Origin: Legionella waltersii
GTDB lineage: Bacteria > Pseudomonadota > Gammaproteobacteria > Legionellales > Legionellaceae
Length of the DNA stretch: 40,215 nucleotides
Direction of reading: 5' to 3'
NCBI RefSeq assembly: GCF_001468085.1
Contig: NZ_LNZB01000009.1
Span: 1-40,215 of the forward strand
A model generated the notes under the pieces. It was not told the origin of the DNA. It was given only the letters and a program-made list of their open reading frames with translations, and searched no databases. Made by a program: the position numbers and the translations under genes. Positions 3,998 to 22,212 of this stretch are shown here, in pieces (positions within the stretch are counted from its first letter, which is position 1; each line of letters starts with the position of its first letter).

Positions 3998-4101
3998 AGC
4001 GATACCCTTTGGGTTTGTGGCTAACACAATAAGCAATTAGGTTTTGTATAGTTTAATTATAGGACATTAATCAGGCATGAAATTGAACAGCTATTTGGGA
4101 T

Positions 4102-6890: not shown

Positions 6891-7026
6891 TGTTGTTCTC
6901 ATTGTGTTGTTCAGCATACCCTATTCAAAGTATAGAATAAGATGAATGGCTTATAAAAATTATTTTGCTATTTCATCCATCGTTCTTTATTCTTAAAAAT
7001 TAGTGAGCATGATGGTTTTACTAACA

Positions 7027-7147
7027 GGACTTACGAAAAAACCAAAGGTTGAGGCAAAAGACATTGTAAATGAGGGAGTTTAGATGGACTAAATGACCGA
7101 ATTCACAATGTCTTTTAACGAAGAGATTAGGGTTTTTCGTAAGTCTT
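7027..7147. repeat. MITE-like palindromic repeat, copy 3 (inverted)
   Basis: The ends are GGACTTACGAAAAAACC and GGTTTTTCGTAAGTCTT. The inner arms read GACATTGT and ACAATGTC, so their pairing is kept although the bases differ from copy 1. Orientation is opposite to copies 1 and 4. The element sits between the small Cys-rich gene and the pilus locus, about 60 bases before the first pilin gene. The remaining sequence of the 6891-7209 gap shows nothing I can name. Confidence 0.75.
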
Positions 7148-7209
7148 GACTAAATCTAGTCTTTTCGTGAGCTCGAATAGAGTCGTTAAATTAAAACTTG
7201 GAATAATTA

Positions 7210-7620
7210 GTGAAGAAGATTATAAAAGGATTTACTTTACTTGAGCTGATTGTTGTAATGCTTGTCATCAGTATTCTTTTAATTAGCGTTCAAATGAGTA
7301 TGCCTTCATCGGCAAATTATAATTTATCCTCTGTGACAGACCGCATCAGAACAGACCTACGCTACACTAATTTGTTGGCTTTAAGTTTAAATCAAAGCTA
7401 TAGCATTGTTTTTTCGGCAAACAGCTATTCCATCTCGCCAGATCCACCAAGTGGACCCTATTCGGTGACAATGCCTTCTGGAGTGACCTTATCGACTGTT
7501 ACTGTTACGTTTGATTCCATGGGAACTCCAAATGCTCCTGCAAGTATCGCGATTACAGCGTCTGGGGTAGGGACAAATACATTGACAGTAACCGCTGAAA
7601 CGGGGTTTGTGAATGGCTAA
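7210..7620 (+). CDS. Minor pilin, GspH/FimT/MshC-like
   Basis: The product of 136 residues starts MKKIIKGFTLLELIVVML, a type IV prepilin leader: a short basic segment, Gly before the cleavage site, Phe at +1, Glu at +5 and a hydrophobic helix. After cleavage by prepilin peptidase it would enter the pilus from the inner membrane. The rest (TDRIRTDLRYTNLLALSLNQSY) follows the GspH/FimT layout, and a Ser/Thr-rich beta region ends the protein. Translation starts at GTG with only a weak TTGGA upstream. It is the first gene of the pilus locus and overlaps the next by eight bases. Confidence 0.8.
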   Translation: MKKIIKGFTLLELIVVMLVISILLISVQMSMPSSANYNLSSVTDRIRTDLRYTNLLALSLNQSYSIVFSANSYSISPDPPSGPYSVTMPSGVTLSTVTVTFDSMGTPNAPASIAITASGVGTNTLTVTAETGFVNG

Positions 7621-9094
7621 GCAATCCGGTTATTTGATAATGGTTGTAGCTGTTCTGCTCGTTGTTGTGGCTGGTTTAGGCACAGCGTATGTGTCGATGT
7701 CAGTGAGTAGTGGAAGAGCAACCAGCAGCATAGTATCGGCCAATCATGCCTATGATCTTGCCTCCACTGCTGTTGAACAAGGCAGTTACCAATTGCTCTT
7801 AGGAAGTTGCAACTCCAGTTGGAGTAGCGCAGTGGTTGTTAGTGGGCAAGGCGAGTATCAATACAATTGTACCCAATACAGTGCTGGCACCACCACCACA
7901 AGTGCGTTGACCAACGTTGCTACAACTATTCCGTTAAGTACGACGGCTAATTTTGCAAGTTTTGGCGCGATTACCATCGATTCAGAAGTCATTTATTACG
8001 ACGGCATAAGTGGGAATAACTTGTTAAATGCTCGAAGGGGGCAAAACGGTACTACAGCTGCAGGCCATCTAATAAACGCCACTGTTTCCCAAGCGCAATA
8101 CATTATTGTTGGTCAAGGTGGAACACCATCTTTAAGCCGCTTAGAAGGTTCTGTGACTTTGCAGCAAGTGGTGTATCTGAACTACAGCTCCAATTATTAC
8201 GCAGTTGGCACGAATGGATCAAACGGAGTGATCTTGTATTACAATGGTTCTACTTGGTCCACTGTATTAACTGCAGCAAGTGGGTTTACTTTTTATCACG
8301 CAGACATGACCTCCACGTATGGACAAGCTGTGGGTCATAACACGTCGAACCAATCAGCCATCTATGCCTTCAATGGGAGCACGTGGTCAGTCATTGCCTC
8401 TGGCTTATCCATGAATTTAGAGGTTGTTGGTTGCGATAGCCCAACTAGTCCAACTAATTGCTGGGCAGGAGGACAAGCTGTTTCTCCTGGTCGTGGCCTT
8501 TTGTACCGAGGAGGGACCACCTACACCGCAAGTAACAATTTTATGCTGACTGGTCTTTCCTGTACTGGCGGCAATTGCATGGCGGTTCGGAACAATAGTA
8601 GCTATCCTTTTGTTTCCACCTCAATAAGCCCTTTTACGACTAATTTGTCTTTGGCTACGACCATCAATGACGTTGATTGTGCACAAGCTAATCGCTGCGT
8701 GGCAGTTCGGTCCAACGGGTCAGTGTACTATTACAACGGAGCTTGGTCTGGGGCTATTAGTTTATCAGGTGTAGCACTGACTTCAGTGAATTGTCCTAGT
8801 GCGGGGAATTGCATGGTGGCTGGAAATAGTGGAAGAATCTATAACTGTAGCCTTCCAATAACATCCAGTGCATCTTGTGCCTTACAATCAACGCCAGGAT
8901 CCTTAAACATATTGGATATATTTTGCAATTCGACAAGCGATTGTTTGGCTGTTGGGGCGGGAACTACAGCCTACAGATACAATGGAAGTAGCTGGGTTAC
9001 TGTCACTTTACCAGCGAGTTATACGTTGAGAGGTGTTACAGGGTATATGGGTGGAGCTGCGTCCGTTATTCCAATTATTTTGCGCAATCAGTAA
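7613..9094 (+). CDS. MshP/PilX-like minor pilin fused to a propeller-like repeat domain
   Basis: Residues 1-35 (GYLIMVVAVLLVVVAGLGTA and flanks) form a PilX/MshP-type membrane helix without the classic GFTLIE cleavage motif. Residues to about 95 resemble the MshP core with a Cys pair. A short linker domain (ITIDSEVIYYDG, RRGQNGTTAAGH) is like segments in phage tail and adhesin proteins. From about residue 180 to the end, six or so repeats share patterns such as AVGTNGSN, YYNGSTWS and CMVAGNSGRIY, with paired cysteines, as in Ycf48/BNR-type beta-propellers. At 493 residues it is about three times the usual MshP length. It overlaps the upstream pilin gene. A tip-located adhesin is the most likely role, by inference. 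Confidence 0.72.
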   Translation: MAKQSGYLIMVVAVLLVVVAGLGTAYVSMSVSSGRATSSIVSANHAYDLASTAVEQGSYQLLLGSCNSSWSSAVVVSGQGEYQYNCTQYSAGTTTTSALTNVATTIPLSTTANFASFGAITIDSEVIYYDGISGNNLLNARRGQNGTTAAGHLINATVSQAQYIIVGQGGTPSLSRLEGSVTLQQVVYLNYSSNYYAVGTNGSNGVILYYNGSTWSTVLTAASGFTFYHADMTSTYGQAVGHNTSNQSAIYAFNGSTWSVIASGLSMNLEVVGCDSPTSPTNCWAGGQAVSPGRGLLYRGGTTYTASNNFMLTGLSCTGGNCMAVRNNSSYPFVSTSISPFTTNLSLATTINDVDCAQANRCVAVRSNGSVYYYNGAWSGAISLSGVALTSVNCPSAGNCMVAGNSGRIYNCSLPITSSASCALQSTPGSLNILDIFCNSTSDCLAVGAGTTAYRYNGSSWVTVTLPASYTLRGVTGYMGGAASVIPIILRNQ

Positions 9095-9104
9095 AGGTTT
9101 ATTG

Positions 9105-9506
9105 ATGAACATAAAACAACAAAAGGGATTTTCATTGATTGAGATGGTTATCTTTATAGTTGTGATAGGTATTGTTGCGAGTACTTTATTGATTGGTTTA
9201 AACCAATCAGCTCGATACAGCGGTATTCCTCGTTCAGATTTAGAGGCAAGTTTTTTAGCCAATGCACGCTTGCAGATTATTTTGATGAATAGGTACTTAA
9301 ATGGATATACTCTGTTAAGTGATCCCTGTACTACTACACCAGCCTTGAATATCTGCACTCCATTATCCAGCTATGCAACAACGAATGGGCTTATTGTAAG
9401 TACGCCTACTATTTCTGGCTCTAATCCTAAAGTGATTAGTCTAAGCGTTTCAGGTAATGGCAATGCTTCAATACAAGCAAGGACGTACAATTATGCGAAC
9501 AATTAA
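9105..9506 (+). CDS. Minor pilin, MshD-like
   Basis: This 133-residue protein starts MNIKQQKGFSLIEMVIFIVV, a classical prepilin leader with cleavage between Gly and Phe and Glu at +5. The later segment contains SDLEASFLANARLQIILMNR, then a Cys pair (DPCTTTPALNIC) and a beta-rich tail. The helical stretch fits MshD/GspI-type minor pilins. I chose the ATG at 9105 because AAAGG is seven bases upstream; a longer open frame from 9033 runs inside the previous gene. It lies ten bases after the propeller-fused gene and overlaps the next by 14 bases. Confidence 0.75.
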   Translation: MNIKQQKGFSLIEMVIFIVVIGIVASTLLIGLNQSARYSGIPRSDLEASFLANARLQIILMNRYLNGYTLLSDPCTTTPALNICTPLSSYATTNGLIVSTPTISGSNPKVISLSVSGNGNASIQARTYNYANN

Positions 9507-9963
9507 AGGCTTTACCTTGATAGAAATGGTTATCGTTATGGTTATTACAGGGATAATCGTTGCCATTACAGCCACCATGCTCAACACAAGTTTTATTAAT
9601 TATTTCACCAGTGTTCATTATTCAAGTTTATCCACGCAAGGCGCTATAGCCATGATGCGCATCAGCAAGGAGTTGCAACAAGCGACTCGGTTTTCAGTGA
9701 TTAATCCAACCAGCGTTACCTTCACTACGGTAGGCGGCACTTCAATTAGTTACAGTTGGTCAACACCAATTTTAACTCGTACTGGAAGTGCAGCTAGAAC
9801 ATTAAGCGATGACGTAACAAACTTTTCATTAAATTATTATCAATCCAATTTTAGCACAACTGCAACGGCCTCAGCCGTTAGAGCAGTAACTGTGAGCATG
9901 ACCTTAAGTAATGGCACAGAATCAGTACCACTAATCAATACCATCTACTTAAGTAATATGTAG
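9493..9963 (+). CDS. Minor pilin, MshO/GspJ-like
   Basis: The protein has 156 residues and starts MRTIKGFTLIEMVIVMVITG, with the Gly/Phe cleavage site and Glu at +5. Its body (GAIAMMRISKELQQATRFSV, then paired beta strands) matches the MshO/GspJ type, which normally carries a longer globular domain. The start at 9493 has AAGGA nine bases upstream and lies inside the end of the previous gene, so the two are probably translationally coupled. It is the last of the four-gene minor pilin block. An 80-base gap follows, which may hold a second promoter for the assembly genes. Confidence 0.78.
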   Translation: MRTIKGFTLIEMVIVMVITGIIVAITATMLNTSFINYFTSVHYSSLSTQGAIAMMRISKELQQATRFSVINPTSVTFTTVGGTSISYSWSTPILTRTGSAARTLSDDVTNFSLNYYQSNFSTTATASAVRAVTVSMTLSNGTESVPLINTIYLSNM

Positions 9964-10043
9964 TCTAATTTTGTGGAAGGCTTATTCGACAAAATCACAG
10001 ACCTCGGGTACACTAAATTTATTTAAAATAATCAGGAAGATAC

Positions 10044-10973
10044 ATGTTTGGTGGTATAGGACGTTCGAAATCTTCTTTTCCAATTTATTCTTGCTTTTGG
10101 ACCGAGCACAGTTATTCTTTGATAGGTTTTGATAAAGCGCAAAAAATTTGTTTTAGCGAATACCACTCATTGTCTGAACCTTCTCTAACCCTGTTGCAAA
10201 AAGAACTCGAGCACGATGTGAATAAGCATCGATTATACGGAAAGTCTATACAGCTCATTTTGTCTCCTAGCTTCTATCAATTGATTCAAATGGATGCCCC
10301 AGAAGCGATTGAAGAAAGCGAAATGGCCAAAGCCCTTCGGTGGCAATTAAAAGGATTGGTGGATTATCCTTTGAACGACATCGCTGTAGATGCTTTTATG
10401 ATACCCCCTCACGGATCGGGTAATCGTCGTAAAAAAGTATTCGTTGCAGCCACTTTGCAATCTGAGCTACTCAATAAGATAAGGCTTTTTGAAGACTGTT
10501 TTTTGAACGTATCCAGCGTTACTATCGCGGAGATGGCATTAAGTGCTTTAGTCGCTTATTTCTCAACGTCTAAAGAGACATCGGCTATTGTGATTAGCTT
10601 TGACGATGATATGTGTCAACTTTACGTTTATTTCCAAGGTGATCTGTATCTATGCCGCTCGCTTCCTATTAATAAATCCATTACTGAACCTAACAGCGCA
10701 GCCAATCATGATATGTTATTGGAAATTCAAAGAAGTATTGATTATTGTTTGATGGAACTTAAACTACCTGAGCCGCAGCAAATACTTTTTACTCCAACTT
10801 TTTATGAGGCAAGCGATTTATTCCTATTTCTTCAAGAAGAGCTCGGAAAGGAAGTGAAGCTCATCGATGCAAGCCCATTCTTTCAGGCAGAAACCACCCC
10901 AACAGAAACAGTAGCGCACTCTTTTTATGCCATCGGTGGTGCTCTCATGACAACGAGACTGGAGAGGGTCTAA
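10044..10973 (+). CDS. mshI: MshI, PilM-like assembly protein
   Basis: This 309-residue protein starts FGGIGRSKSSFP and continues with an actin-fold layout typical of the PilM/MshI group: a segment around LSPSFYQLIQMDAPEAIEES, then ALRWQLKGLVDYPLNDIAVD, which is a hallmark of MshI. It should sit at the cytoplasmic face and bind the PilN-like partner encoded next. An AGGAAG ribosome site precedes the ATG. The stop overlaps the next start as TAATG. Identity rests on both sequence pattern and gene order. Confidence 0.85.
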   Translation: MFGGIGRSKSSFPIYSCFWTEHSYSLIGFDKAQKICFSEYHSLSEPSLTLLQKELEHDVNKHRLYGKSIQLILSPSFYQLIQMDAPEAIEESEMAKALRWQLKGLVDYPLNDIAVDAFMIPPHGSGNRRKKVFVAATLQSELLNKIRLFEDCFLNVSSVTIAEMALSALVAYFSTSKETSAIVISFDDDMCQLYVYFQGDLYLCRSLPINKSITEPNSAANHDMLLEIQRSIDYCLMELKLPEPQQILFTPTFYEASDLFLFLQEELGKEVKLIDASPFFQAETTPTETVAHSFYAIGGALMTTRLERV

Positions 10974-11614
10974 TGCAATCCATTAATTTTGTAAACTCTC
11001 TTCCTAAAGCAACCAGTCGTTTGTCGGCGTTCTGGCTGGGGTTTATACTTTTTTGTATTCTGGTTACTTTGCTCATCATTAGTTTCATCATTGAAGGTGT
11101 TTATATCAATGCTTATCGTGTGGAAAAGGGAGCTGAAACTGAACTCCAACAAGCACAAGCTGATTTCGCAAATTTGCAAAAAACATATCCATTGCTCGCG
11201 GATGATACGCCCTTAGTGAATAAGGTTGTTGAGTTAGATAAGAACTATCAAGAGAAAGTCCACGAGTTGGAAGTATTACAACATATGATTGTTCGTCTTG
11301 GATTTTCAAACTATTTGGAATCGCTTGCTAGAGTTATTCCTAGCAGTCTTTGGCTAAATGAAATTGTTATTCATCACGATCAAAATAAAGTGACTTTAAA
11401 TGGATTCACCATCGATCCAGATTCCATTACATCACTCATGAGAAACCTATCGAAAGAGGAGCCATTTAAGAAAATTGAGTTCACTTTGTTTTTTGTACAA
11501 GCATTAAAAAATCATTCTTATGCTAAGTTTTCAATTTCCAATAGCGAATTGGGACAGAAGGAAATAGAAGAACAACAGATCAGTGATCTCATTAAAATAC
11601 AGCCCAAGGAGTAG
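10973..11614 (+). CDS. PilN-like inner-membrane assembly protein (MshI2)
   Basis: The 213-residue protein begins MQSINFVNSLP, followed by one membrane helix at about residues 22-45 and a periplasmic coiled coil, then a small alpha/beta domain (LWLNEIVIHHDQNKVTLNGF). This is the PilN/GspL-C layout. Its start shares one base with the stop of mshI and mshJ follows five bases later, which is the place of the second MshI-type gene in characterised MSHA loci. It should bridge the cytoplasmic MshI and the periplasmic MshJ. Confidence 0.82.
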   Translation: MQSINFVNSLPKATSRLSAFWLGFILFCILVTLLIISFIIEGVYINAYRVEKGAETELQQAQADFANLQKTYPLLADDTPLVNKVVELDKNYQEKVHELEVLQHMIVRLGFSNYLESLARVIPSSLWLNEIVIHHDQNKVTLNGFTIDPDSITSLMRNLSKEEPFKKIEFTLFFVQALKNHSYAKFSISNSELGQKEIEEQQISDLIKIQPKE

Positions 11615-11619
11615 TATTG

Positions 11620-12351
11620 ATGGAGCTTAACGCGCCTTATATAAAAAGATACTATCAACTGAAGAGAAAAGTGGATCTGCTCAGTGAAAGGGACCGCATT
11701 TTATTATTGGTTTCACTCCTGATAGTGTTGTTATTTGTTTGGATTTATTTTATTTTTGGGTGGCAATTGGATGTCATCCGCGCCGCAACTACGAATACTA
11801 CGCAGCAAAAGCTCCAAGCCAATGAATTACAACAAAAAATCAATATTATTAACAGCTTAATACAAAGCAAGGAAGCGAATAATTTAATCCAGCATTACAA
11901 CAAAGTATCAACACAGTTGAAACAAGTGGATAAGGAAATTGAGGGTTATCACCATGGTTATGTGAACAGCAAAGATCTTGCAAAAATGTTGCATGACATG
12001 TTGAAGCAGCCCCTAGGGATAACAATTGTTGATTTCACGACAGTTGTTTTGCCACCAAAGCCAACGGTCATTTCAACAGAAAACCAGCAAGCACAGGAAA
12101 CACCCAAGGAGAGTTCAAACACTGAGCCTAGTGCGGATATGGAACCAATTCGTTATCGATTAGTCTTGAAGGGTACGTATTTTTCTATCATGAATTACCT
12201 TAAACGGATAGAAGATCTAAAAAGAAATCTTTATTGGGACAAATTCGATTACAAAGTATTAACCTATCCTCAAGGTCAAGCAACCATAGAATTTTATACA
12301 TTAAAACCTCCAAGTAATCCTGCTTTAGTTTTGGGAGGTAAACCACAATGA
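11620..12351 (+). CDS. mshJ: MshJ, PilO-like assembly protein
   Basis: The 243-residue protein has a short cytoplasmic segment, LLSERDRILLLVSL leading into a membrane helix (about residues 25-47), a coiled coil and a ferredoxin-like end. The YYQLKRKVDLLSERDR segment is typical of MshJ. I start it at ATG 11620 because AAGGAG is eight bases upstream; a TTG three bases earlier is also open. It ends in an ATGA overlap with mshK. It should form the PilN/PilO-type inner membrane dimer. Confidence 0.85.
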   Translation: MELNAPYIKRYYQLKRKVDLLSERDRILLLVSLLIVLLFVWIYFIFGWQLDVIRAATTNTTQQKLQANELQQKINIINSLIQSKEANNLIQHYNKVSTQLKQVDKEIEGYHHGYVNSKDLAKMLHDMLKQPLGITIVDFTTVVLPPKPTVISTENQQAQETPKESSNTEPSADMEPIRYRLVLKGTYFSIMNYLKRIEDLKRNLYWDKFDYKVLTYPQGQATIEFYTLKPPSNPALVLGGKPQ

Positions 12352-12677
12352 AACTTTTTAAGTATTTAATAATTAAAGTGTTTTTTTTGATTTTTTTTCT
12401 TGTAAATGCATCCTATGCCGAGCTGCATGATCCAACAAAACCGCCAGTTTTTTCAGAGACTCAAGAGTCCAATGCCAATAATGAGTTTCAATTGCAAAGT
12501 ATCTTTATTGGCCCTATGCGATATTTAGCCATGATCAATGGTCAAATGGTTGGTGTTGGAAGCAGTATTGGCGGGGCTCGTCTTCTTGCTATAGGTAAAA
12601 ACCATGTGGTATTGTTGCAGTCAGGACAAAAGAAAATAATTTACTTATTTGGTAGGCGATTGTGGACCGCTCGTTAA
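12348..12677 (+). CDS. mshK: MshK, small periplasmic pilus assembly protein
   Basis: The 109-residue protein has a signal peptide (ending near NASYA) followed by the family mark LHDPTKPP. The remainder (FQLQSIFIGPMRYLAMINGQ, then VGSSIGGARLLAIGKNHVVL) is the PilP/GspC homology-region fold, with a glycine where the strand turns. It should connect the MshJ complex to the secretin. It overlaps mshJ by ATGA and mshL by TAATG. Confidence 0.85.
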   Translation: MKLFKYLIIKVFFLIFFLVNASYAELHDPTKPPVFSETQESNANNEFQLQSIFIGPMRYLAMINGQMVGVGSSIGGARLLAIGKNHVVLLQSGQKKIIYLFGRRLWTAR

Positions 12678-14404
12678 TGCGAATAATAATAATACTCTTA
12701 AGCTTAATGTTGGCGGCCTGTAAGACACACGCTCCAATAAAAGGTACGGCAGTTGATGAAATGAACAGTGTCATTCAACAGGCTGTAGCAAACAATAAAA
12801 ATGCCATGAGATCCGACAACACCAATGGAAGAGGTACCCCTGTAAGGGCTTTATTGCCAAGTTTAAAAGTGCGTGATTTTAGTTACAGTGGCGGGCCACG
12901 TCGTTTTGATGTTTCAGTGAAAAACGTACCAGCCCAAGCTTTCTACATGGGACTCGTAGCCGATACGAACATCAACATGGTAGTCAGCCCTGAAATCAAA
13001 GGTAATGTCACTTTAGCGCTCAAAAGAGTGACTATTGACCAAGTCCTTCAAGCCCTTGAAGATGCTTATGGATATGCTTACAACTCTATTCCAGGTGGTT
13101 ATGAGATTATTCCTAACACCCTGCGAACACAAATATACAAAGTTAACTACTTAGAATTACAACGCAAGTCACGCTCGAACATGACCGTTAGTTCGGGAGA
13201 GGTGACTGCGAGTCCAAATTCAGGTGGGGTAGGTAATACTACTCCAGGTGGAAACGTCAGTGGATCCATTAATAACGGAAACCAAGCTTACAGTGCAGTA
13301 ATTGGTGATGTTGAAACGAAAAGTACCGTTGATTTTTGGAAGTCACTACAAGTCACCCTACAAAAGATAATTGGTACTTCGAATGGAAGAACTGTAACCG
13401 TTAACCCTGTTGCAGGCATCGTAGTTGTGCATGCTTCTCCTAGAGAGCTTAAGCAAGTAGAGCGTTATTTGGACATGGTGCAAAACAGCATGGACAGACA
13501 AGTGATACTAGAAGCAAAAATATTAGAGGTAAATCTCACCAATGAATTCCAGATGGGTATCGACTGGAGATTGTTCGGTGCTCGATTAAATGCTTTAAGT
13601 AATTTCCCCAATGTGGGGATCATGCAATCCGCATTTCCTGATGCCTATAGAGTTGATGTCCATTGGAATCCACAAGATTTTACTTCAGTCATTCAAGCCT
13701 TAGAAACTCAGGGTAATGTGCAAGTGCTTTCAAGCCCCAGGGTTTCAGCAATGAATAATCAGAAGGCCGCTATAAAAGTTGGTTTTGATGAATTTTTTGT
13801 AACCAACGTTACGCAAAATCAAAACGTGGTTAGTTCAGGATTAGTGACGCAACCCACTGTTAACGTCAATTTAACCCCATTTTTCTCGGGCATTACCTTA
13901 GATGTGACGCCTCAAATAGACGCTAATGGACAAGTGACCCTCCATATTCATCCAACAGTCAGCGAGGTTAAAGATCAGCGCAAAGTTATCGATCTTGGTA
14001 CTCAAGGCGGTACTTTGAATTTACCACTTGCGAACAGCAGAATTCGAGAATCCGATACCATCGTTCACGCTAAGGATGGTCAAGTGGTTGTTATTGGTGG
14101 TCTTATGCAAAATTCAACCACCGAGGGAATAGGACAAGTCCCTTGGTTTGGAAATATACCTTTCTTAGGGACCTTAGTGCGTGCAACCAAGCAAAACTCG
14201 CAAAAAAGCGAGCTGGTCATCTTATTAAGACCTACCCTTGTTAAAGGCAAGCAGACAAATAAAGATCTAACAACTACAGCCCGGCGATTTGCTAGCTTGA
14301 AGCGTGGATTTCATATTGGTGGCCGACCAGATATCTATGGTACTCAAGGAGAGGTACCTGTTATGTTGGGACCTAAATCCAATGAAAACTTAGGTACTCG
14401 TTAA
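12677..14404 (+). CDS. mshL: MshL, outer-membrane secretin
   Basis: The 575-residue protein starts with a lipoprotein signal whose lipobox is LAAC (Cys15). An STN-type N0 domain lies at about residues 90-135 (NMVVSPEIKGNVTLALK), then a Gly/Ser/Asn-rich linker near 165-205, an N1 domain with GIVVVHASPRELKQVERYL, and the secretin core with VQVLSSPRVSAMNNQKA and VVVIGGLMQNS. Secretins form the gated pore through which the pilus passes. I use the ATG overlapping the mshK stop; a GTG 15 bases earlier (12662) is an alternative. Confidence 0.92.
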   Translation: MRIIIILLSLMLAACKTHAPIKGTAVDEMNSVIQQAVANNKNAMRSDNTNGRGTPVRALLPSLKVRDFSYSGGPRRFDVSVKNVPAQAFYMGLVADTNINMVVSPEIKGNVTLALKRVTIDQVLQALEDAYGYAYNSIPGGYEIIPNTLRTQIYKVNYLELQRKSRSNMTVSSGEVTASPNSGGVGNTTPGGNVSGSINNGNQAYSAVIGDVETKSTVDFWKSLQVTLQKIIGTSNGRTVTVNPVAGIVVVHASPRELKQVERYLDMVQNSMDRQVILEAKILEVNLTNEFQMGIDWRLFGARLNALSNFPNVGIMQSAFPDAYRVDVHWNPQDFTSVIQALETQGNVQVLSSPRVSAMNNQKAAIKVGFDEFFVTNVTQNQNVVSSGLVTQPTVNVNLTPFFSGITLDVTPQIDANGQVTLHIHPTVSEVKDQRKVIDLGTQGGTLNLPLANSRIRESDTIVHAKDGQVVVIGGLMQNSTTEGIGQVPWFGNIPFLGTLVRATKQNSQKSELVILLRPTLVKGKQTNKDLTTTARRFASLKRGFHIGGRPDIYGTQGEVPVMLGPKSNENLGTR

Positions 14405-14419
14405 TTTAGGGAGAGTGCG

Positions 14420-15331
14420 TTGTATTTAAATCATTTTAGATTGAGTAAAGCTCCTTTTACACTGACTCCAAATACCGAGTTTTTTTGTGAATTGCCTACT
14501 CATCAGGAGGCTTTAAACATTCTCTTATTGAGTTTAGCTCAGGGTGAAGGCTTCATTAAAATAGTAGGGGAAGTAGGAACCGGTAAAACCTTATTATGTC
14601 GTATTCTATTAAATTCGCTTTCGAATGAGTTTGTTACCGCTTATATTCCAAATCCTGATCAGACAGCAGATGGCTTAAGGTTTTCAGTAGCCTCCGAATT
14701 AGGGATAGTTCCTGAGGAACACTGGACTCAATATCAATTATTAGAAGCAATTAATCAGCGCTTATTAGACTTGCATCGGGAAGGTAAAAAAACGGTGTTG
14801 ATTATTGATGAAGCGCAGGCTCTGCCAGAATCTTGTTTGGAAGCGGTTCGACTATTAACTAATCTAGAAACCGAAGAGCGCAAATTATTACAAGTCGTAC
14901 TTTTTGGCCAACCAGAAATGGATGCAAAATTAGAAAAAATGGGTTTACGTCAACTAAAGCAGCGAATTACATTTTCCTATGAGCTACAACCACTTGCTAA
15001 AGAGGAGCTGGATAAATACTTGAGTCATCGATTAGCTAAAGCCGGATACACTTATGGAAGTGTGTTTACTAAATCAGCACAACGGCATTTGTATAAGGCG
15101 AGCAAAGGCTTACCTCGCTTATTGAATATTTTGTGCCACAAAGCACTATTGGTTGCTTATGGGCAGGGGAAATCTCAAGTAGATGGTCAAGCGGTCAAAA
15201 GAGCGATTGCGGATACAGAAAGCACCTTGGAAAGCTCCTGGTATAGATCGGGATTCTCCTATGTGGTTTTGGGAGCTCTAAGCTTAGGCATCATTTTGTA
15301 CGTCTACTGGAATTATGGGGCTAATCTATGA
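14420..15331 (+). CDS. mshM: MshM, ExeA-like AAA ATPase
   Basis: The 303-residue protein contains Walker A (GEVGTGKTLL, about residues 53-62) and Walker B (VLIIDEAQAL) and one C-terminal membrane helix. The start MYLNHFRLSKAPFTLTPN and FFCELPTHQEALNILL are typical of MshM/ExeA proteins, which help to assemble or place secretins. Translation starts at TTG, supported by a strong GGGAGAG six bases upstream and by alignment to the usual N-terminus. It overlaps mshN by ATGA. Confidence 0.9.
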   Translation: MYLNHFRLSKAPFTLTPNTEFFCELPTHQEALNILLLSLAQGEGFIKIVGEVGTGKTLLCRILLNSLSNEFVTAYIPNPDQTADGLRFSVASELGIVPEEHWTQYQLLEAINQRLLDLHREGKKTVLIIDEAQALPESCLEAVRLLTNLETEERKLLQVVLFGQPEMDAKLEKMGLRQLKQRITFSYELQPLAKEELDKYLSHRLAKAGYTYGSVFTKSAQRHLYKASKGLPRLLNILCHKALLVAYGQGKSQVDGQAVKRAIADTESTLESSWYRSGFSYVVLGALSLGIILYVYWNYGANL

Positions 15332-16395
15332 GCTTATTAAACGATATGCTTCATGATTTAGCAAAGCAGACTCCCTCTAAACTAGTTGCTCCTCAATTAA
15401 TGCCAGCAAAGACTAAGAAACGATTTTCTATGGAAAAGAGCCTTAAAGGTATTGCTGTAAGTCTTTTTGTAACTTCGCTATGTTTATTGTTATACCATGA
15501 AACGAAGTCTAAACCTTCAAGGCCAAAACAGCCAATCCATCAAAATGTGATTTTACAAGAAGTAGCACCAGAGAATCCAAGTCAAGTCATCACGGAAATT
15601 AAACCTCAACGCAGGAAGCTGGTTGAGGTGCTAGATAGCTATATCGAGCCCATCGAATCATGGGCTTCCGAGCATTCAATCTCTGAACTAGAAAGCAAAT
15701 TGATTGAGCCTATGCATGAATGGGTTGATACTCATGGTGAACCTGCAGTAGCTTCAGTAGAAAGTACTGATAACCAGACTATTAATGGGGAAATCGTCAA
15801 TAAGGTCTATTCCCCGCAAACAACAGAAGAATGGGCGAACGAGCAGATTAAAATAGCGCTAGAGGCAATTGATGAAGGTTTTGATGAAAAAGCCATTAGC
15901 ATCTTAGAATCAGTGATTAGTAAAGCCCCTGAATCTAAAGTTGCAAGAGAAAACTTAGCATCTCTGTATATGATCTATGGAAAAACGAATGAAGCAGGTC
16001 TAGTTATTGATGAGGGATTGAGGCTTACACCGGCTGATCCGCCTTTACTCACAGCAAAAGCAAGACTCTTCATTGAAAAAGGGCAAAGTATTCAAGCTGT
16101 AGAGTTATTGTCTAAATTCCAGCCTTCGATAAATCAATATCCGGATTATTATGGAACTTTAGCGGCGGCACTTCAAGCTGAGGGGCATATCTTAGAGACA
16201 GGAGGTATTTATCAGTCTTTAATACAGATCGACTCAAACAACGGTCAGTATTGGTTAGGCTATGCTTTGTTTTTAGAGCATACTAAGAAAGCGAATCAAG
16301 CTATTGATGCTTATACTCGAGCCTCTCAGAGTCAAGACACAAACGCGAATGTGCGTGAATTTGCCGAAAGTCGATTGAAAATTTTACAGGGATAA
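15328..16395 (+). CDS. mshN: MshN, TPR-containing pilus assembly protein
   Basis: The 355-residue protein starts MSLLNDMLHDLAKQ, a typical MshN opening. One membrane helix lies near residues 40-58, followed by a charged spacer and, from about residue 165, four or five TPR-type helical repeats (AIEAIDEGFDEKAISILE-like units). By family it sits in the inner membrane with the TPRs in the periplasm and may bind the secretin or MshM. It overlaps mshM by ATGA and lies two bases before mshE. Confidence 0.82.
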   Translation: MSLLNDMLHDLAKQTPSKLVAPQLMPAKTKKRFSMEKSLKGIAVSLFVTSLCLLLYHETKSKPSRPKQPIHQNVILQEVAPENPSQVITEIKPQRRKLVEVLDSYIEPIESWASEHSISELESKLIEPMHEWVDTHGEPAVASVESTDNQTINGEIVNKVYSPQTTEEWANEQIKIALEAIDEGFDEKAISILESVISKAPESKVARENLASLYMIYGKTNEAGLVIDEGLRLTPADPPLLTAKARLFIEKGQSIQAVELLSKFQPSINQYPDYYGTLAAALQAEGHILETGGIYQSLIQIDSNNGQYWLGYALFLEHTKKANQAIDAYTRASQSQDTNANVREFAESRLKILQG

Positions 16396-16397
16396 AA

Positions 16398-18122
16398 ATG
16401 AAACGAATCCGGCTTGGTGAAATACTGCTAAATGAAGGTTTAATTGATCAAGACATTCTTAATAAAGCCATAGAGCTGCAAAAAAAAACTGGTGATAAAT
16501 TTGGGCGAACCCTAATTGGAATGGGGGTTGTGGCTGAAAATGATGTGTTAAAATTAATTGCAAATCAGCTTTCTATTGAATTTGTTGATTTGAATCATGC
16601 TGAAGTTGATCCCAATTTAGTGCAATTATTACCTGAAATCTATGCACGCAGATACAGAGCAATCGTGCTCGGAAAAGACCAGGACCATTTGTTGGTAGGC
16701 ATGGCCGATCCTCAGGACATTAATGCGTTTGATGCGGTTTCTAAAATCTTAAAACACCCCATTAAAATGGCTGTGGTTAGTGAGTTTGCTTTATTAAAAG
16801 TGCTGGATAGAGTCTATAGACGAACTTCCGAAATATCGCATTTTGCCCATGAACTTTCAGAAGAGATTTTCGAAGATTATAAAGAAGTGACTGATGAGTT
16901 GTTGGATGAGTCTAAGGAAAATGAAGAGCAAGCACCTGTAGTAAAGCTATTAAACTCATTATTTCGCGATGCTATTCAAGCTAGGGCTTCTGATATTCAT
17001 ATTGAGCCTGCGGAAAAGACATTACGTATCCGTTTTCGTATAGATGGGATTCTGCATGAAAGTGTGTTAGACGATAAGCGCATTCTTAATGCTTTGGTTC
17101 AGCGTTTAAAACTAAAAGCGCATCTCGATATCGCTGAAAAAAGAATTCCCCAGGATGGTCGATTTAACTTTGTTATTCGAGGTAATTCTTATGATGTAAG
17201 GGTTTCAACGATGCCGACAGCTAATGGAGAATCTATTGTTATGCGTTTGCTGGATCAATCGGCACGCATCAATGATCTAACACAACTGGGCATAGATCAA
17301 GAAACGATAAAGCAGCTTGAATACATTTATTCAAAGCCTCATGGAATGTTATTAGTGACTGGACCAACAGGAAGCGGTAAGACAACGACTTTATACAGCA
17401 TTTTAAGTCGCTTGAATTCTCCAGAGCGAAAAATACTAACGGTAGAGGATCCCATTGAATATAGGATTGAGCGTGTTAACCAGATCCAAGTTAATCCTAA
17501 GATCGACCTGACCTTTGCCCGCGTCTTACGATCAATCTTGCGCCAAGATCCGGATGTGATTATGGTTGGGGAAATAAGGGATTCTGAAACAGCCCAAATT
17601 GCTATGAGAGCTGCTATTACAGGACATTTAGTTCTAGCAACGCTGCATACAAACGACGCTATAACATCAGCGATGCGCTTAATTGATATGGGTGCAGAGG
17701 GTTATATGGTTGCTGCAGCAGTTAAAGGAATTATTGGTCAGCGATTGGTGCGAACTTTGTGTGGACATTGTGCTCGCCCTGAAAGACTGGATGAGCATGA
17801 AGCGGTTTGGCTCAGTTCAATGAATGTGGATACTAATCTCCTTTATAAAAAGGCGGTTGGATGTTCTCATTGTAATTATCGGGGTTATGTTGGGCGAAGG
17901 GGGGTGTACGAACTGCTTGTCTTAGATAAAGACATGTTGTATGCCTTACGGAAAAATGACTCAAGTCAGTTTGTTAAAGCAGCTTTAGCCTGTAAAGGTT
18001 ACCATCCGTTGTCAAAATCAGTGTTGGAAATGGTTGTAAAGGGTGAAACATCTGTAGCTGAGGCAATCAGGGTTGTTGGTCAGCTCGATGAGGAGTTTAT
18101 GCGGGATGAATCGATAAGTTAA
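16398..18122 (+). CDS. mshE: MshE, extension ATPase with c-di-GMP-binding N-terminus
   Basis: The 574-residue protein matches the family length. Residues 5-28 (RLGEILLNEGLIDQ, ending in Gln28) and 34-57 (KFGRTLIGMGVVAEN, ending in Gln57) form the paired 24-residue motif of the MshEN c-di-GMP-binding domain. The motor follows: Walker A GPTGSGKTTT, Asp box, Walker B DPDVIMVGEIRD, His box ITGHLVLATLHTND, and a tetracysteine zinc site (CGHC, CSHC). It should power pilus extension in a c-di-GMP-dependent way. In the second motif the usual Leu before Gly is Phe35. No separate retraction ATPase (PilT-like) lies in this window. Confidence 0.93.
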   Translation: MKRIRLGEILLNEGLIDQDILNKAIELQKKTGDKFGRTLIGMGVVAENDVLKLIANQLSIEFVDLNHAEVDPNLVQLLPEIYARRYRAIVLGKDQDHLLVGMADPQDINAFDAVSKILKHPIKMAVVSEFALLKVLDRVYRRTSEISHFAHELSEEIFEDYKEVTDELLDESKENEEQAPVVKLLNSLFRDAIQARASDIHIEPAEKTLRIRFRIDGILHESVLDDKRILNALVQRLKLKAHLDIAEKRIPQDGRFNFVIRGNSYDVRVSTMPTANGESIVMRLLDQSARINDLTQLGIDQETIKQLEYIYSKPHGMLLVTGPTGSGKTTTLYSILSRLNSPERKILTVEDPIEYRIERVNQIQVNPKIDLTFARVLRSILRQDPDVIMVGEIRDSETAQIAMRAAITGHLVLATLHTNDAITSAMRLIDMGAEGYMVAAAVKGIIGQRLVRTLCGHCARPERLDEHEAVWLSSMNVDTNLLYKKAVGCSHCNYRGYVGRRGVYELLVLDKDMLYALRKNDSSQFVKAALACKGYHPLSKSVLEMVVKGETSVAEAIRVVGQLDEEFMRDESIS

Positions 18123-18133
18123 GGGATTAATGA

Positions 18134-19360
18134 ATGCCAGAGTTTTACTACAGTGCCCGTGATCAACAGGGTAAAGCAGTAAATGGACAAAAAGTTGCGC
18201 CTAATGCTGAAGAGCTTGCAAATCAGCTTTTAGCTGACGGCTTAATGCCTGTAGACATTTCATTGCAGGCAGTCAAAAAATTAACTAATCGCAAAAAAAA
18301 GATATCCCACTTTTTTTCTAAAGTGACTCATGATGAGTTACATATGTTTTGTCGACAAATGTATTCCTTAACTCATGCTGGTATTCCCTTGTCGGAGTCG
18401 ATACAAAGATTGTCTGAGACGACGAACAATCCCCTTTTAGCAGAAGCTTTTCAGACGATTGTCGCCAATTTAAATAAAGGCAGTTCATTGCATGTAGCCA
18501 TGGCACAATACCCAACTATTTTCGATGATTTTTTTCTCAATCTCATCGTTGTTGGCGAAAACACAGGTAATTTGGATCGTATCTTCCTGCATTTGGCAGA
18601 TTACCTAGAAATGGAAATTGATATTACGCAAAAAGTCAAAACGGCTATGCGCTATCCCATCATGGTCATGAGTTCTATTTTGATTGCATTGATTGTGATT
18701 AACGTGTTTGTTGTTCCAGCATTTTCAAAACTATATGTCAATTTTCAAGGTGAATTGCCCCTCCCAACAAAAATATTGATTGTAAGCTCTAATTTTATCA
18801 TTCATTATTGGTATATAGTTATCGGATTGATATTACTAGGAATTATTGGTTTTCGTGCTTATATTGCTACGCCAGAAGGAGCTATCGCTTGGGGAAAGTT
18901 CGAGCTTAAAATTCCTGTGGTTGGGTGGTTGATTCACCGAATCTTACTAGCCCGTTTTGCTCGACTCATGGCCTTAGTTCTAAGAGCTGGGATCACTGCC
19001 GTTGAGGGAATCCAAATGGTTGGTGCTACGACTAATAACGCTTATATGGCACAAAAAATAAAAGGAGTTACTGATTTGATCGTGCGAGGTAATACGATAG
19101 CTAGCGCGGTTGATAAGACACAGCTTTTCCCTCCTTTAGTCATTCAGATGATCTTGCTGGGGGAGGAGAGTGGTACCATCGATCATCTATTGGACGAGGT
19201 GGCAGATTTCTACCAAAGAGAGATTGATTATGACATCGTTCGATTAAGCGACATCATAGAACCTATTCTATTGGTTGTGATCGGTGGCATGGTATTGATT
19301 CTGGCTTTGGGAGTCTTTTTGCCAATGTGGAACTTAGCTAACTTGGTGAGTCATAAATGA
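18134..19360 (+). CDS. mshG: MshG, inner-membrane platform protein (GspF family)
   Basis: The 408-residue protein has two GspF/PilC domains, about residues 65-190 and 268-395, each with the conserved helical pattern (FCRQMYSLTHAGIPL; FARLMALVLRAGI), and three membrane segments. The N-terminal YYSARDQQGKAVNGQ region is the usual cytoplasmic domain. It should bind MshE and couple its motion to pilin insertion. It overlaps mshF by ATGA. Confidence 0.92.
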   Translation: MPEFYYSARDQQGKAVNGQKVAPNAEELANQLLADGLMPVDISLQAVKKLTNRKKKISHFFSKVTHDELHMFCRQMYSLTHAGIPLSESIQRLSETTNNPLLAEAFQTIVANLNKGSSLHVAMAQYPTIFDDFFLNLIVVGENTGNLDRIFLHLADYLEMEIDITQKVKTAMRYPIMVMSSILIALIVINVFVVPAFSKLYVNFQGELPLPTKILIVSSNFIIHYWYIVIGLILLGIIGFRAYIATPEGAIAWGKFELKIPVVGWLIHRILLARFARLMALVLRAGITAVEGIQMVGATTNNAYMAQKIKGVTDLIVRGNTIASAVDKTQLFPPLVIQMILLGEESGTIDHLLDEVADFYQREIDYDIVRLSDIIEPILLVVIGGMVLILALGVFLPMWNLANLVSHK

Positions 19361-19836
19361 TCGACTTAAGCAAATCATACCGCTTATCGCGGTTTCATTT
19401 TGTCATAGTGATAATTGTAATGGCTTTGTTGGTTGGAATTTTTTTGCGGTTTTTTTCAATAATACAAGCCTCTATTGAACAAGTATCAGTGGATGTTAGT
19501 TTTTTAAATTTCCAACAAATGATCCGGTACCATAATATGGTGTCTGAATCAAAAGACAAACACTGCAAAATTTTAGAAAACCCATCTCTATTTAAGGGAA
19601 TGGGCATAGATGGCTTAGATACTTTGGGTGATTCTCGAGCGACATCTGGAGGGTGGAGCTATGATTCTAAAAATCACTCCCTGTCTTATACAGTGCACAG
19701 TAACTCTTATTTTAGGTCAAAAATTGACCACAAAATTGTTATTGGACTATACTGTAAAAATGGGGTTGTCGGCTTTAACGTGTCTGATTATCAATGGTGT
19801 CGAGATAAACGAATCTGGGGCTGTCAAAGTTGGTAG
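19357..19836 (+). CDS. mshF: MshF-like pilus accessory protein
   Basis: The 159-residue protein has one N-terminal membrane helix (FHFVIVIIVMALLVGIFL) and then a small periplasmic domain with WSYDSKNHSLSYTV and two cysteine-bearing segments near the end (YCKNG, WCRDKRIWGC). It lacks the GFTLIE cleavage motif. Position between mshG and the major pilin, size and the WSYD-LSY pattern fit MshF. Its exact role is not well described for the family. Confidence 0.68.
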   Translation: MIDLSKSYRLSRFHFVIVIIVMALLVGIFLRFFSIIQASIEQVSVDVSFLNFQQMIRYHNMVSESKDKHCKILENPSLFKGMGIDGLDTLGDSRATSGGWSYDSKNHSLSYTVHSNSYFRSKIDHKIVIGLYCKNGVVGFNVSDYQWCRDKRIWGCQSW

Positions 19837-19888
19837 CTAATTGTGCACTTTGTTTTGTGATTGGTTTTTAACAGTTAAGGAAAAGAGA

Positions 19889-20314
19889 ATGAGAAAATTA
19901 AAAGGGTTTACTTTAATTGAGCTAGTGGTAGTCATGGTTATATTAGGTATTTTGGCTGCTTTTGCAATACCTAAATTCTATGATTTTAGCACTCAAGCCA
20001 ATATAGCAGACTTGAATGGTTTAGCTGGTGCATTGAACTCTGCTAATGTCACTGCACATGGTGCTGCTCTTGCAACAGGAGCTACAGGACCTACAGGAAC
20101 TATTACCATGGAAGGCACCTCAGTTGGATTAGTATTTGGCTATCCCTCTGCTGCAGGCATTACAAGTGCTGTAACTGTTTCAAGTGGTTTTACGGTTGCA
20201 ACAAGCGGTAGTACGACAACATATACCTTAAAGACTGACTGTTTGGTCACTTTCACTCAAGCTCCTAATGCTACTACACCAGCTTCAGTTTCAATTACTT
20301 CCTCTGGTTGTTAA
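19889..20314 (+). CDS. mshA: Major type IV pilin, MshA/MshB-like
   Basis: The 141-residue product begins MRKLKGFTLIELVVVMVILG, a type IVa prepilin leader with cleavage after Gly6. The KFYDFSTQANIADLNGLAGAL segment and the terminal disulfide loop (TDC to SGC) match MshA-type pilins. I chose ATG 19889, preceded by AAGGAAAAGAG; an upstream open frame from 19841 would add a non-pilin leader. It is the only pilin after mshF, where characterised loci carry mshB and mshA in tandem. It ends the pilus locus; a hairpin follows. Confidence 0.85.
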   Translation: MRKLKGFTLIELVVVMVILGILAAFAIPKFYDFSTQANIADLNGLAGALNSANVTAHGAALATGATGPTGTITMEGTSVGLVFGYPSAAGITSAVTVSSGFTVATSGSTTTYTLKTDCLVTFTQAPNATTPASVSITSSGC

Positions 20315-20362: not shown

Positions 20363-22090
20363 TTATTGAACATCCAATAGTTCCTCGATTCGCTTAAGAA
20401 AACCATTGTACAAATTCACCAGTTGAATAGGATACGGTTTATTGTTTAATTCAATATCAGGGTAGTCATTTCGAATAAGAGCAGTAACTTCTTTTAAAAG
20501 TGTTAATTTTGTAGGATTCTTTAATTGCCATAAGGGCTCTAAGTAGTTCATTAATATCTTCTTATTTCTCTCCAAGTATTCTTGGCAGTGAATACCATTC
20601 AAGGTAGTGATGTAAATATTGTCTCTCATTGCTTCAATTAAGAGTTGAGCCGACTCTTCTTCAAACTTATTGCCCCAAAGATTAAGCGTTTGCAAACTAG
20701 TATTTGTGCGAATTATCTCCGCCAAATCACCAGTAGAGAGTGAATTTAAATGATTAAAGCCAATGTCTAACAAACGAATGCTTGGATGGTTACGCAAAAT
20801 TTCAGCAATAAACTTAACCCCAACATCGCCAATGGCATTATTTCCTAAATACAATTGAGACAAGGTCTTGTTGATTTTAAGGGCGTGGAATAAGTATTCA
20901 GCGCCGGTCGGATTGATTTTATTATGAACTAAGTTGATGGTATGCAATGTATTGTTTTTTTCGAGTCCTTTAGCCAATGATTTTGAACCTGAGTCGCTAA
21001 TTCTGTTTCCCCTGAGGTTTAGAACTTCAAGGCTTTCATTGTGCTTAAGCATTGTGCCTAACTCTTCTGCGCCTAATCCAGTGATGTTATTAAATCCCAA
21101 ATGAAGAGTTTTTAATGAAGAGTTCGCTTTTAGTGCTTCAGCAATGTATTTTGTTCCTTCGTCACCAATGTTGTTATGATCTAAATAAAGCGTATGAAGG
21201 TGGGAGTTGGATTTTAAGGACAGCGCAATCTCCTTTGCACTTTGGGCATCGATATCCGTGTTATCCAGTATAAGCATCTGTAATCCTGAATTTATTTTCA
21301 AAGCCTCTGCTAACGCTTTTATTCCTGCAAGTTTTAGAGAGTTATTTTCTAAAATCAAGGTAGAAAGACTGTTATTGGATTTTAGGGCTTGTGCGAAATC
21401 AAGTGCAGATACTGCGTCGAATCCAGTAACAGATAGATCCAATAGCTTCAGTGAATGGTTTACTTTTAACGCTTTAGCAAGATAAGTTGTGCCCTCTGAC
21501 AAAAGGGGATTATTTTTTAACTTAATCACTTGCAGCGTTTTAGAAATACTAATGGCTTTCGCTATTTCAGAAATTCCGTGGACAGAGATATTATTGTTAC
21601 TGATATCGACTTCTTCAATGCATTTATTGACTCTAAGTGCATCTGCTAAATACATTGCTCCCTCATCTCCTATTCTGTTTCCATAGAGGCTAATGGATTT
21701 AATGCTGTTGTTTATTTTTAGACTCTCTGAAAGTTCTTTAATTCCTGACGGGCCGATATTGTTATGATCCAGTCGAATATGCGTTAAGCTTTGATTGATT
21801 TTAATGGATTCTGCAATTTCCTTAATTCCGGCTGGTCCAATGTTGTTGTATTCTAAACCCAACGTTTTGAGGGTAGTGTTGTGAACCAATGCCTTGGCCA
21901 GCACCTTTGCTCCAGAAGGGCCAATGTAATTATCTCCTAATAAGACAGTTTCTAAATTCGTATTTGTCGTAATAATATCGGCCAGATTCTGAGCATCAAA
22001 GGCGTCAATTTTATTCAGGCGTAAATTCAAATGAGTATAAGCAGGGTCGTTGTTCTTTAAAGCATTTAGTATATTCCAATTAATACTCAT
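20363..22090 (-). CDS. Long RNase-inhibitor-type leucine-rich-repeat protein, effector candidate
   Basis: From about residue 15 to 515 the protein is built of some 17-18 repeats of about 28 residues with the NLR/ribonuclease-inhibitor pattern (for example LDHNNIGPSGIKELSESLK and LHLGFNNITGLGAEELGTML). This repeat class is typical of eukaryotic and intracellular-pathogen proteins and binds other proteins. About 60 non-repeat residues close the C-terminus, which ends in KRIEELLDVQ. I start at ATG 22090 (MSINWNILNALKNND); a GTG at 22150 would add 20 hydrophobic residues, and neither has a ribosome site that I can see. Secretion into host cells is inferred from the repeat type. Confidence 0.82.
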   Translation of the reverse strand: MSINWNILNALKNNDPAYTHLNLRLNKIDAFDAQNLADIITTNTNLETVLLGDNYIGPSGAKVLAKALVHNTTLKTLGLEYNNIGPAGIKEIAESIKINQSLTHIRLDHNNIGPSGIKELSESLKINNSIKSISLYGNRIGDEGAMYLADALRVNKCIEEVDISNNNISVHGISEIAKAISISKTLQVIKLKNNPLLSEGTTYLAKALKVNHSLKLLDLSVTGFDAVSALDFAQALKSNNSLSTLILENNSLKLAGIKALAEALKINSGLQMLILDNTDIDAQSAKEIALSLKSNSHLHTLYLDHNNIGDEGTKYIAEALKANSSLKTLHLGFNNITGLGAEELGTMLKHNESLEVLNLRGNRISDSGSKSLAKGLEKNNTLHTINLVHNKINPTGAEYLFHALKINKTLSQLYLGNNAIGDVGVKFIAEILRNHPSIRLLDIGFNHLNSLSTGDLAEIIRTNTSLQTLNLWGNKFEEESAQLLIEAMRDNIYITTLNGIHCQEYLERNKKILMNYLEPLWQLKNPTKLTLLKEVTALIRNDYPDIELNNKPYPIQLVNLYNGFLKRIEELLDVQ

Positions 22091-22212
22091 AGCTATTGAA
22101 AGAGTTGTGATGCTTGTTAAAATACTAGCATATAAATAACCAGTTCGCACAAACTGTAAGCTAACAGAGCAGGGTTACTGAGGGATGAATTGTATCTCCC
22201 TAGCTAAGCTCT

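What the first reader, a model, noticed from the sequence alone, without database searches (positions are those of the whole stretch)
7210..20314. Near-complete MSHA-type pilus locus with minor pilins placed first
Fifteen genes in one direction encode pilins, secretin, motor and platform. In characterised loci of Vibrio and Shewanella, as I recall, the minor pilins mshC, D, O, P come after the major pilin; here they come before mshI, and only one major-type pilin follows mshF. Legionella is best known for a PilB/C/M-Q type pilus, so a separate MSHA system in a Legionella-like genome would be an accessory attachment machine.
Basis: partly seen in the sequence, partly recalled or inferred. Interest (0 to 1): 0.75.

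Follow-up and report, generated by a model that had tools for sequence, protein, structure and literature searches.

The report
Rotated MSHA pilus locus in Legionella
A Legionella genome carries, besides its ordinary type IV pilus genes, a run of 15 genes related to the MSHA attachment pilus of Vibrio but with the gene blocks in another order; it is predicted to build a second attachment fibre whose likely tip protein is a pilin joined to a predicted propeller-shaped domain.

Summary
Fifteen + strand ORFs (7210-20314) encode an MSHA-type pilus machine: the secretin passes the MshL model (257.8 bits, cut-off 250.2) and the minor pilins precede mshI. The genome has separate pilMNOPQ, pilBCD, pilT-family and type II secretion genes, so the locus is accessory. 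It is patchy: MshL passes its cut-off in 6 of 45 same-genus and 15 of 143 family genomes.

For Legionella, the tree favours a minor-pilin block moved upstream inverted and later flipped, so rotation as a mechanism is unproven. Piliation, adhesion, tip role and c-di-GMP control are inferred. New variant of a known kind.

The parts
7025..7148 (.). MITE-like element with 22-nt terminal inverted repeats, flanked by the direct repeat actaa, just upstream of the first pilin gene
   Evidence: Inverted repeats, sequence, about 40 places in the genome (first look capped)
7210..7620 (+). minor pilin, mshC position (FimT/GspH-like)
   Evidence: N_methyl 26.6 bits; GspH and ComGD models below their cut-offs
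7613..9094 (+). MshP-like minor pilin with a C-terminal predicted propeller (residues about 191-482)
9105..9506 (+). minor pilin, mshD position (listed ORF start 9033)
   Evidence: N_methyl 29.2 bits
9493..9963 (+). minor pilin, mshO position (listed ORF start 9457)
   Evidence: N_methyl 30.7 bits
10044..10973 (+). mshI (PilM-like)
   Evidence: PilM_2 25.2 bits, under the cut-off of 27
10973..11614 (+). PilN-like gene (second mshI-type gene)
   Evidence: PF05137 43.5 bits
11617..12351 (+). mshJ (PilO position)
   Evidence: No family at 1e-3; weak T2SSM, E 0.006, under its cut-off; conserved position
12348..12677 (+). mshK
   Evidence: No family over its cut-off; conserved position
12662..14404 (+). 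mshL secretin
   Evidence: TIGR02519 257.8 bits, cut-off 250.2
14420..15331 (+). mshM (AAA ATPase)
   Evidence: PF13401 100.5 bits; TIGR03015 229.6 bits, below its cut-off of 324.5
15328..16395 (+). mshN (TPR protein)
   Evidence: PF14559 41.1 bits
16398..18122 (+). mshE extension ATPase with N-terminal c-di-GMP motif domain
   Evidence: T2SSE 455.6 and MshEN 60.8 bits; NF053729 56.2 bits, cut-off 38; V. cholerae MshE N-domain 5htl 4e-26
18134..19360 (+). mshG inner-membrane platform
   Evidence: T2SSF 198.8 bits
19357..19836 (+). mshF
   Evidence: No family; position and relatives
19889..20314 (+). mshA-type pilin (listed ORF start 19841)
   Evidence: N_methyl 35.4 bits; 75-82% identical to the full copies in three related species

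Best explanation
The 15 co-directional ORFs are homologues of the MSHA-type pilus genes with the minor-pilin block placed before mshI, and they are predicted to build an accessory adhesive type IV pilus whose likely tip subunit is MshP joined to a predicted propeller. Inferred working: minor pilins C, P, D and O would prime the fibre; MshE would drive extension and would be tuned by c-di-GMP; MshG and the I-K proteins would hold the assembly platform; MshL would be the outer-membrane pore; the mshA product would be the shaft. Prepilin peptidase and retraction ATPases would be shared with the ordinary type IV pilus, because none is encoded in the locus and both kinds are elsewhere in the genome. 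MshP resembles PilX, lacks Glu at mature position 5 and carries its own propeller, so it would do in one chain what PilX plus PilY1 do at other pilus tips, in place of MshQ. History, inferred: the locus was exchanged between Legionella lineages, and its order came from a minor-pilin block placed upstream of mshI on the opposite strand and later flipped.
For: Gene content and MshL cut-off. Separate T4aP and T2SS sets. Same gene set in five further Legionella species and nine other family genomes; in 13 of 15 family loci the minors lie directly upstream of mshI (10 same strand, 3 divergent), in G096 three ORFs intervene, in G087 the contig ends. MshP: model and matches, N-terminus related to mshP-position genes, N-terminus plus propeller in 13 of 15 family loci, one of them split in two ORFs. 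PF20419 (MshQ) in 0 of 15 family genomes and 3 of 3 controls. MshE motif domain over cut-off and the V. cholerae parallel (PMC4624765, passages). Tree: the 15 family loci are one clade; nearest outgroups L106 and L107 have divergent minors and L108 is canonical. Conflict with PilQ: AU p 6e-5 against window + L. quateirensis/L. bononiensis for MSHA, and p 0.003 against window + the other three for PilQ.
Against: No expression, pilus or adhesion data. MshM alone is slightly closer to the L. quateirensis type (77.6-77.7% against 74.7-75.7%), against the transfer signal. PilQ is one gene, not a species tree. MshM, MshE and mshI fall below the curated cut-offs of the full-length models they match best. 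The second c-di-GMP motif of MshE departs from the printed consensus at several leucines. PilX_N (PF14341) itself does not match the window's MshP. A MITE-like element sits 61 bp before the first gene and could disturb or supply its promoter; promoter-like sites in the region are no more than chance, 28 against 36.8 expected.
Confidence: 0.82

Rival explanations
1. MSHA loci change as a ring: a tandem copy (or an excised circle) followed by complementary loss moves the linear start of the operon to another junction, and the window is one such rotation.
For: 34 of 128 MshL loci were complete on one strand: 20 canonical, 12 rotations at three other junction types, 2 neither; the two L. quateirensis-type loci add a fourth junction. 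On the tree the rotations fall into about five clades, against one clearly non-rotational case, L142. If one random transposition of five blocks made each change, 5 of 6 rotations has p 0.0016. L132 and L133 hold a tandem copy of I-L.
Against: The test was framed after seeing the data and the groups are few. 4 of the 12 rotations are the window's own type. Other layouts are common and were outside the count: minors on the opposite strand (L038-L040, L085, L106, L107), G and A apart (g26), or E and G not seen. In the window's lineage the outgroups carry divergent minors, which favours relocation plus inversion. No full tandem MSHA copy was found.
Confidence: 0.3
2. The locus is a copy of the ordinary type IVa pilus or of the type II secretion system.
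For: MshE and MshG score best with GspE/GspF models, although below cut-off.
Against: MshL over its own cut-off; distinct T4aP and T2SS sets elsewhere; MshM, MshN and MshEN components; clade with MSHA loci.
Confidence: 0.03
3. The locus is an intact but silent or decaying acquisition.
For: Patchy distribution; split ORFs in G097 (mshI, mshM, mshG) and in mshP of one L. bononiensis assembly; MITE-like element upstream.
Against: All 15 window ORFs are open, with close spacing and conserved prepilin motifs; intact copies in other species.
Confidence: 0.15

Closest known systems
MSHA pilus of Vibrio cholerae (VC0399-VC0414)
   Same: I, J, K, L, M, N, E, G, F, A and C, D, O, P-type genes in one locus; MshE with c-di-GMP motif domain
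   Different: In V. cholerae two operons, mshI-F and mshB-Q (PMC4624765, passages); here one run with the minors first, mshP second, no mshB and no mshQ, and a long MshP with a predicted propeller
PilX-PilY1 tip complex of type IVa pili (Myxococcus xanthus, PMC7541494, passages)
   Same: PilX-like subunit without Glu5 joined functionally to a propeller; proposed tip and priming role
   Different: There two proteins; here one predicted chain. No sequence relation of the propeller to PilY1 was tested
L. quateirensis / L. bononiensis MSHA locus
   Same: Orthologous gene set and propeller MshP
   Different: G-F-A lies before the minor block instead of after mshE

Membership tests
MSHA (MSH) pilus | MshL secretin over the curated cut-off | tested here: met
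   257.8 bits, cut-off 250.2
[quoted passage not shown]
   All five found by Pfam/NCBIfam and relatives; only mshL by an MSHA-specific curated model, and the authors' own HMMs were not run
MSHA (MSH) pilus | no prepilin peptidase in the locus (PMC6668835, passages) | tested here: met
   None among the 15 ORFs
MSHA (MSH) pilus | MshQ (PF20419) | tested here: not met
   0 of 15 family genomes, 3 of 3 controls; mshQ is accessory, not mandatory, in the sense of the model quoted, which names only five mandatory genes
MSHA (MSH) pilus | canonical order with minors after mshA | tested here: not met
   Minors precede mshI; order is not part of the quoted definition
MSHA (MSH) pilus | surface filament, adhesion, c-di-GMP response | not testable with these tools
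   Only the motif domain was scored
Type IVa pilus PilMNOPQ/PilBC | PilQ and PilB models over cut-off | tested here: not met
   PilQ 134.4 of 284.35, PilB 548.5 of 675.65
Type II secretion | GspD, GspE, GspF over cut-off | tested here: not met
   166.6 of 351.35; 569.4 of 630.25 and 326.4 of 424
PilX-type minor pilin (MshP) | PilX_N (PF14341) | tested here: inconclusive
   No match in the window's protein; linked through an N-terminal HMM to mshP-position genes, one of which (L076) has PilX_N

The most novel reading that the evidence does not exclude
MSHA pilus loci conserve a cyclic, not a linear, gene order: the operon rotates by tandem duplication and complementary loss (or a circular intermediate), opening at five different junctions across Gammaproteobacteria, and the Legionella locus is one such rotation, travelling between species with a one-chain pilin-propeller tip that replaces MshQ.
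Probability: 0.25. Interest if true: 0.72.

Novelty: new variant of a known kind. Interest (0 to 1): 0.47.

Why it matters
Work on Legionella pili deals with the T4aP/competence pilus; an accessory MSHA machine in some species would be a second, separately acquired attachment organelle in bacteria that live with amoebae. The MshP-propeller links the PilX and PilY1 roles in one predicted protein, and the mostly ring-preserving gene order makes a testable case of how a large operon can be rearranged without breaking its neighbour relations.

Tried and rejected
Whole-operon rotation as the origin of the window's order was preferred for a time and then demoted, because basal family loci and outgroups L106 and L107 have divergent minors. 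My notes said that the propeller was absent from the first 40 class loci and that G221 and G500 hold tandem MSHA copies. Neither stands: the printed list was cut before any propeller rows, one search shows a propeller in L074, L083 and L087, and one search shows that the neighbours in G221 and G500 are another type (M-L-N-E-G). Only L132 and L133 show a tandem I-L copy.

Association of the propeller with rotated order: 10 of 14 rotated loci (12 plus two; 6 of the 10 are Legionella) against 1 of 20 canonical loci. Too few independent clades to use.

tRNA as an insertion site: none in the window. Empty site from flanking genes: the upstream MFS gene has no relative at 1e-40 in the 44 other genus genomes; the downstream YARHG gene has matches in 9 others, whose surroundings I did not fetch. 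Promoter scan: no signal above chance.

Literature: Legionella with MSHA, permuted operons and MshP/MshQ or propeller tips: no paper seen in the listings describes an MSHA pilus in Legionella, a rotated MSHA locus or a propeller MshP. Searches listed 25 of 28, 25 of 28 and 15 of 23 papers; most were judged by title and start of abstract, and the library lacks most subscription journals. PilY1's propeller did not appear in the 50 rows shown; that shows nothing either way.

Full report
Check of the observation. The 15 ORFs are present on one strand at 7210-20314, with gaps of at most 80 bp at the starts used. Pfam and NCBIfam give prepilin N-termini to four of them, and PilN, secretin, AAA ATPase, TPR, T2SSE/MshEN and T2SSF domains to the others, with a PilM match just under its cut-off. 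The secretin is over the curated MshL cut-off (257.8, cut-off 250.2) and far below those of PilQ and GspD. Four ORFs match no family at 1e-3 and are identified by position and relatives.

Host and other pili. The window's genome shares their GTDB genus; its own species name was not established. It holds three GspE/PilB/MshE-type ATPases, a pilMNOPQ run and pilBCD (several named by order and by eye), and two PilT-family genes over the cut-off. MshG is 31% identical to each of the two other T2SSF homologues.

Distribution. MshL passes its cut-off in 6 of 45 same-genus genomes and 15 of 143 family genomes; the order search returned the same 143. In a class sample, 167 of 369 genomes match at 1e-55 and 139 pass the cut-off. 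MSHA itself is therefore common in the class and patchy in this family.

Gene order in the family. The window, PC997, L. gormanii and L. santicrucis have minors, I to E, then G-(F)-A on one strand (mshF was matched in the window and L. santicrucis). L. quateirensis and L. bononiensis have G-F-A, minors, I to E. Four g26 genomes have minors and I to E together with G and a pilin elsewhere. G089, G090 and G091 have the minors divergent, upstream of mshI. In G096 three ORFs lie between a cut propeller ORF and mshI, and in G087 the contig ends. In all, 13 of 15 have the minors directly upstream of mshI. In genus Legionella mshP has moved to second place in the block; in the other family loci where it is visible it is last.

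Gene order in the class. Of 40 class loci mapped first, 21 have I, L, M, E and G; 18 of these have at least four pilin or MshP ORFs downstream, one (L063, an odd locus) was called upstream, and two show none. I then fetched 17 stretches because they matched the MshP alignment or carried MshL in the same genomes (a biased choice) and 60 more from the MshL list. Among all 128 stretches with MshL, 34 have I, L, E, G and P on one strand within 17 kb: 20 canonical; 4 opened between I and the PilN gene (L074, L083, L118, L146); 3 between N and E (L109, L120, L154; M and N not labelled in L109); 5 between G and P (window, L019, L020, L021, L133); and 2 that are not rotations, L147 (K and L swapped within the I-PilN-type order) and L142. 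The two L. quateirensis-type loci are not in the 34 because their mshG lies outside the first stretch; they are rotations opened between E and G.

How much the ring means. On a tree of MshL+MshM+MshE columns (67 loci, quick method) the rotated types fall into about five groups. With L142 as the one other order, 5 of 6 changes are rotations: p 0.0016 if each were one random transposition of five blocks, 2.5e-7 for free shuffles. The test is post hoc, the groups are few, and layouts with the minors on the opposite strand or split loci are outside it. L132 and L133 contain a tandem I-L copy, the only direct sign of duplication. In the window's own lineage L106 and L107, the nearest outgroups, and basal family loci carry divergent minors, and L108 further out is canonical. 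I therefore prefer relocation with inversion followed by a flip for Legionella, and keep rotation as the bolder reading.

Transfer. A PilQ tree of 15 Legionella groups the window with L. quateirensis and L. bononiensis (96/93), PilQ identity 80-81% against 70-71% for the other three MSHA-bearing species. MSHA proteins group it with the other three (100/99); MshL is 80-83% identical to them and 72% to the first two. AU tests reject each tree on the other's data (p 6e-5 and 0.003). MshM alone leans the other way by two to three points. The six loci lie in four different gene neighbourhoods, read by eye. GC of the locus is 40.3% against 38.7% for the rest of the window, so composition gives no signal.

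Control. MshE carries the MshEN domain, passes the c-di-GMP motif model (56.2, cut-off 38) and matches the solved V. cholerae domain 5htl. Motif 1 keeps RLG and Q24; motif 2 starts KFG and has V and I where the consensus prints leucines (consensus from PMC11731258, passages). In V. cholerae MshE binds c-di-GMP and is needed for surface pili (PMC4624765, passages). The same control here is likely but untested.

Prior art. PMC6668835 (passages and section 13) describes MSH loci as almost always single and organisation as conserved within types; rotation is not mentioned in the text I saw, and its Figure 5 is not held. PMC13170364 (passages) treats the L. pneumophila type IV pilus; in those passages MSHA appears only in a reference title.

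Noticed in passing
window 7025-7148: A 124-bp MITE-like element with terminal inverted repeats and a 5-bp direct repeat (actaa), about 40 places in the genome, one of them beside pilT on the same contig (C9:44083-44207).
   Followed up: partly
window 20363-22150: A 595-aa leucine-rich-repeat protein converges on mshA with 48 bp between.
   Followed up: no
window 2756-4036: A calpain-like cysteine protease domain (PF00648, 70.6 bits), unusual for a bacterium.
   Followed up: no
window 5459-6667: An MFS transporter with no relative at 1e-40 in the 44 other genus genomes.
   Followed up: partly
L037 2435-3490 and L040 1141-2175: ATPase ORFs of PilT size next to the MSHA locus in G087 and G091, possibly locus-bound retraction ATPases.
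   Followed up: no
L044, L101: G097 has mshI, mshM and mshG each split in two ORFs; the locus looks decaying or the assembly has errors.
   Followed up: no
L103 12468-13000 and L021 14669-15610: A second mshA copy: broken in pieces in PC997, intact and in tandem in L. santicrucis.
   Followed up: no
L180, L181: A different secretin-ATPase cluster (M-L-N-E-G type) lies directly beside the MSHA locus in G221 and G500.
   Followed up: no
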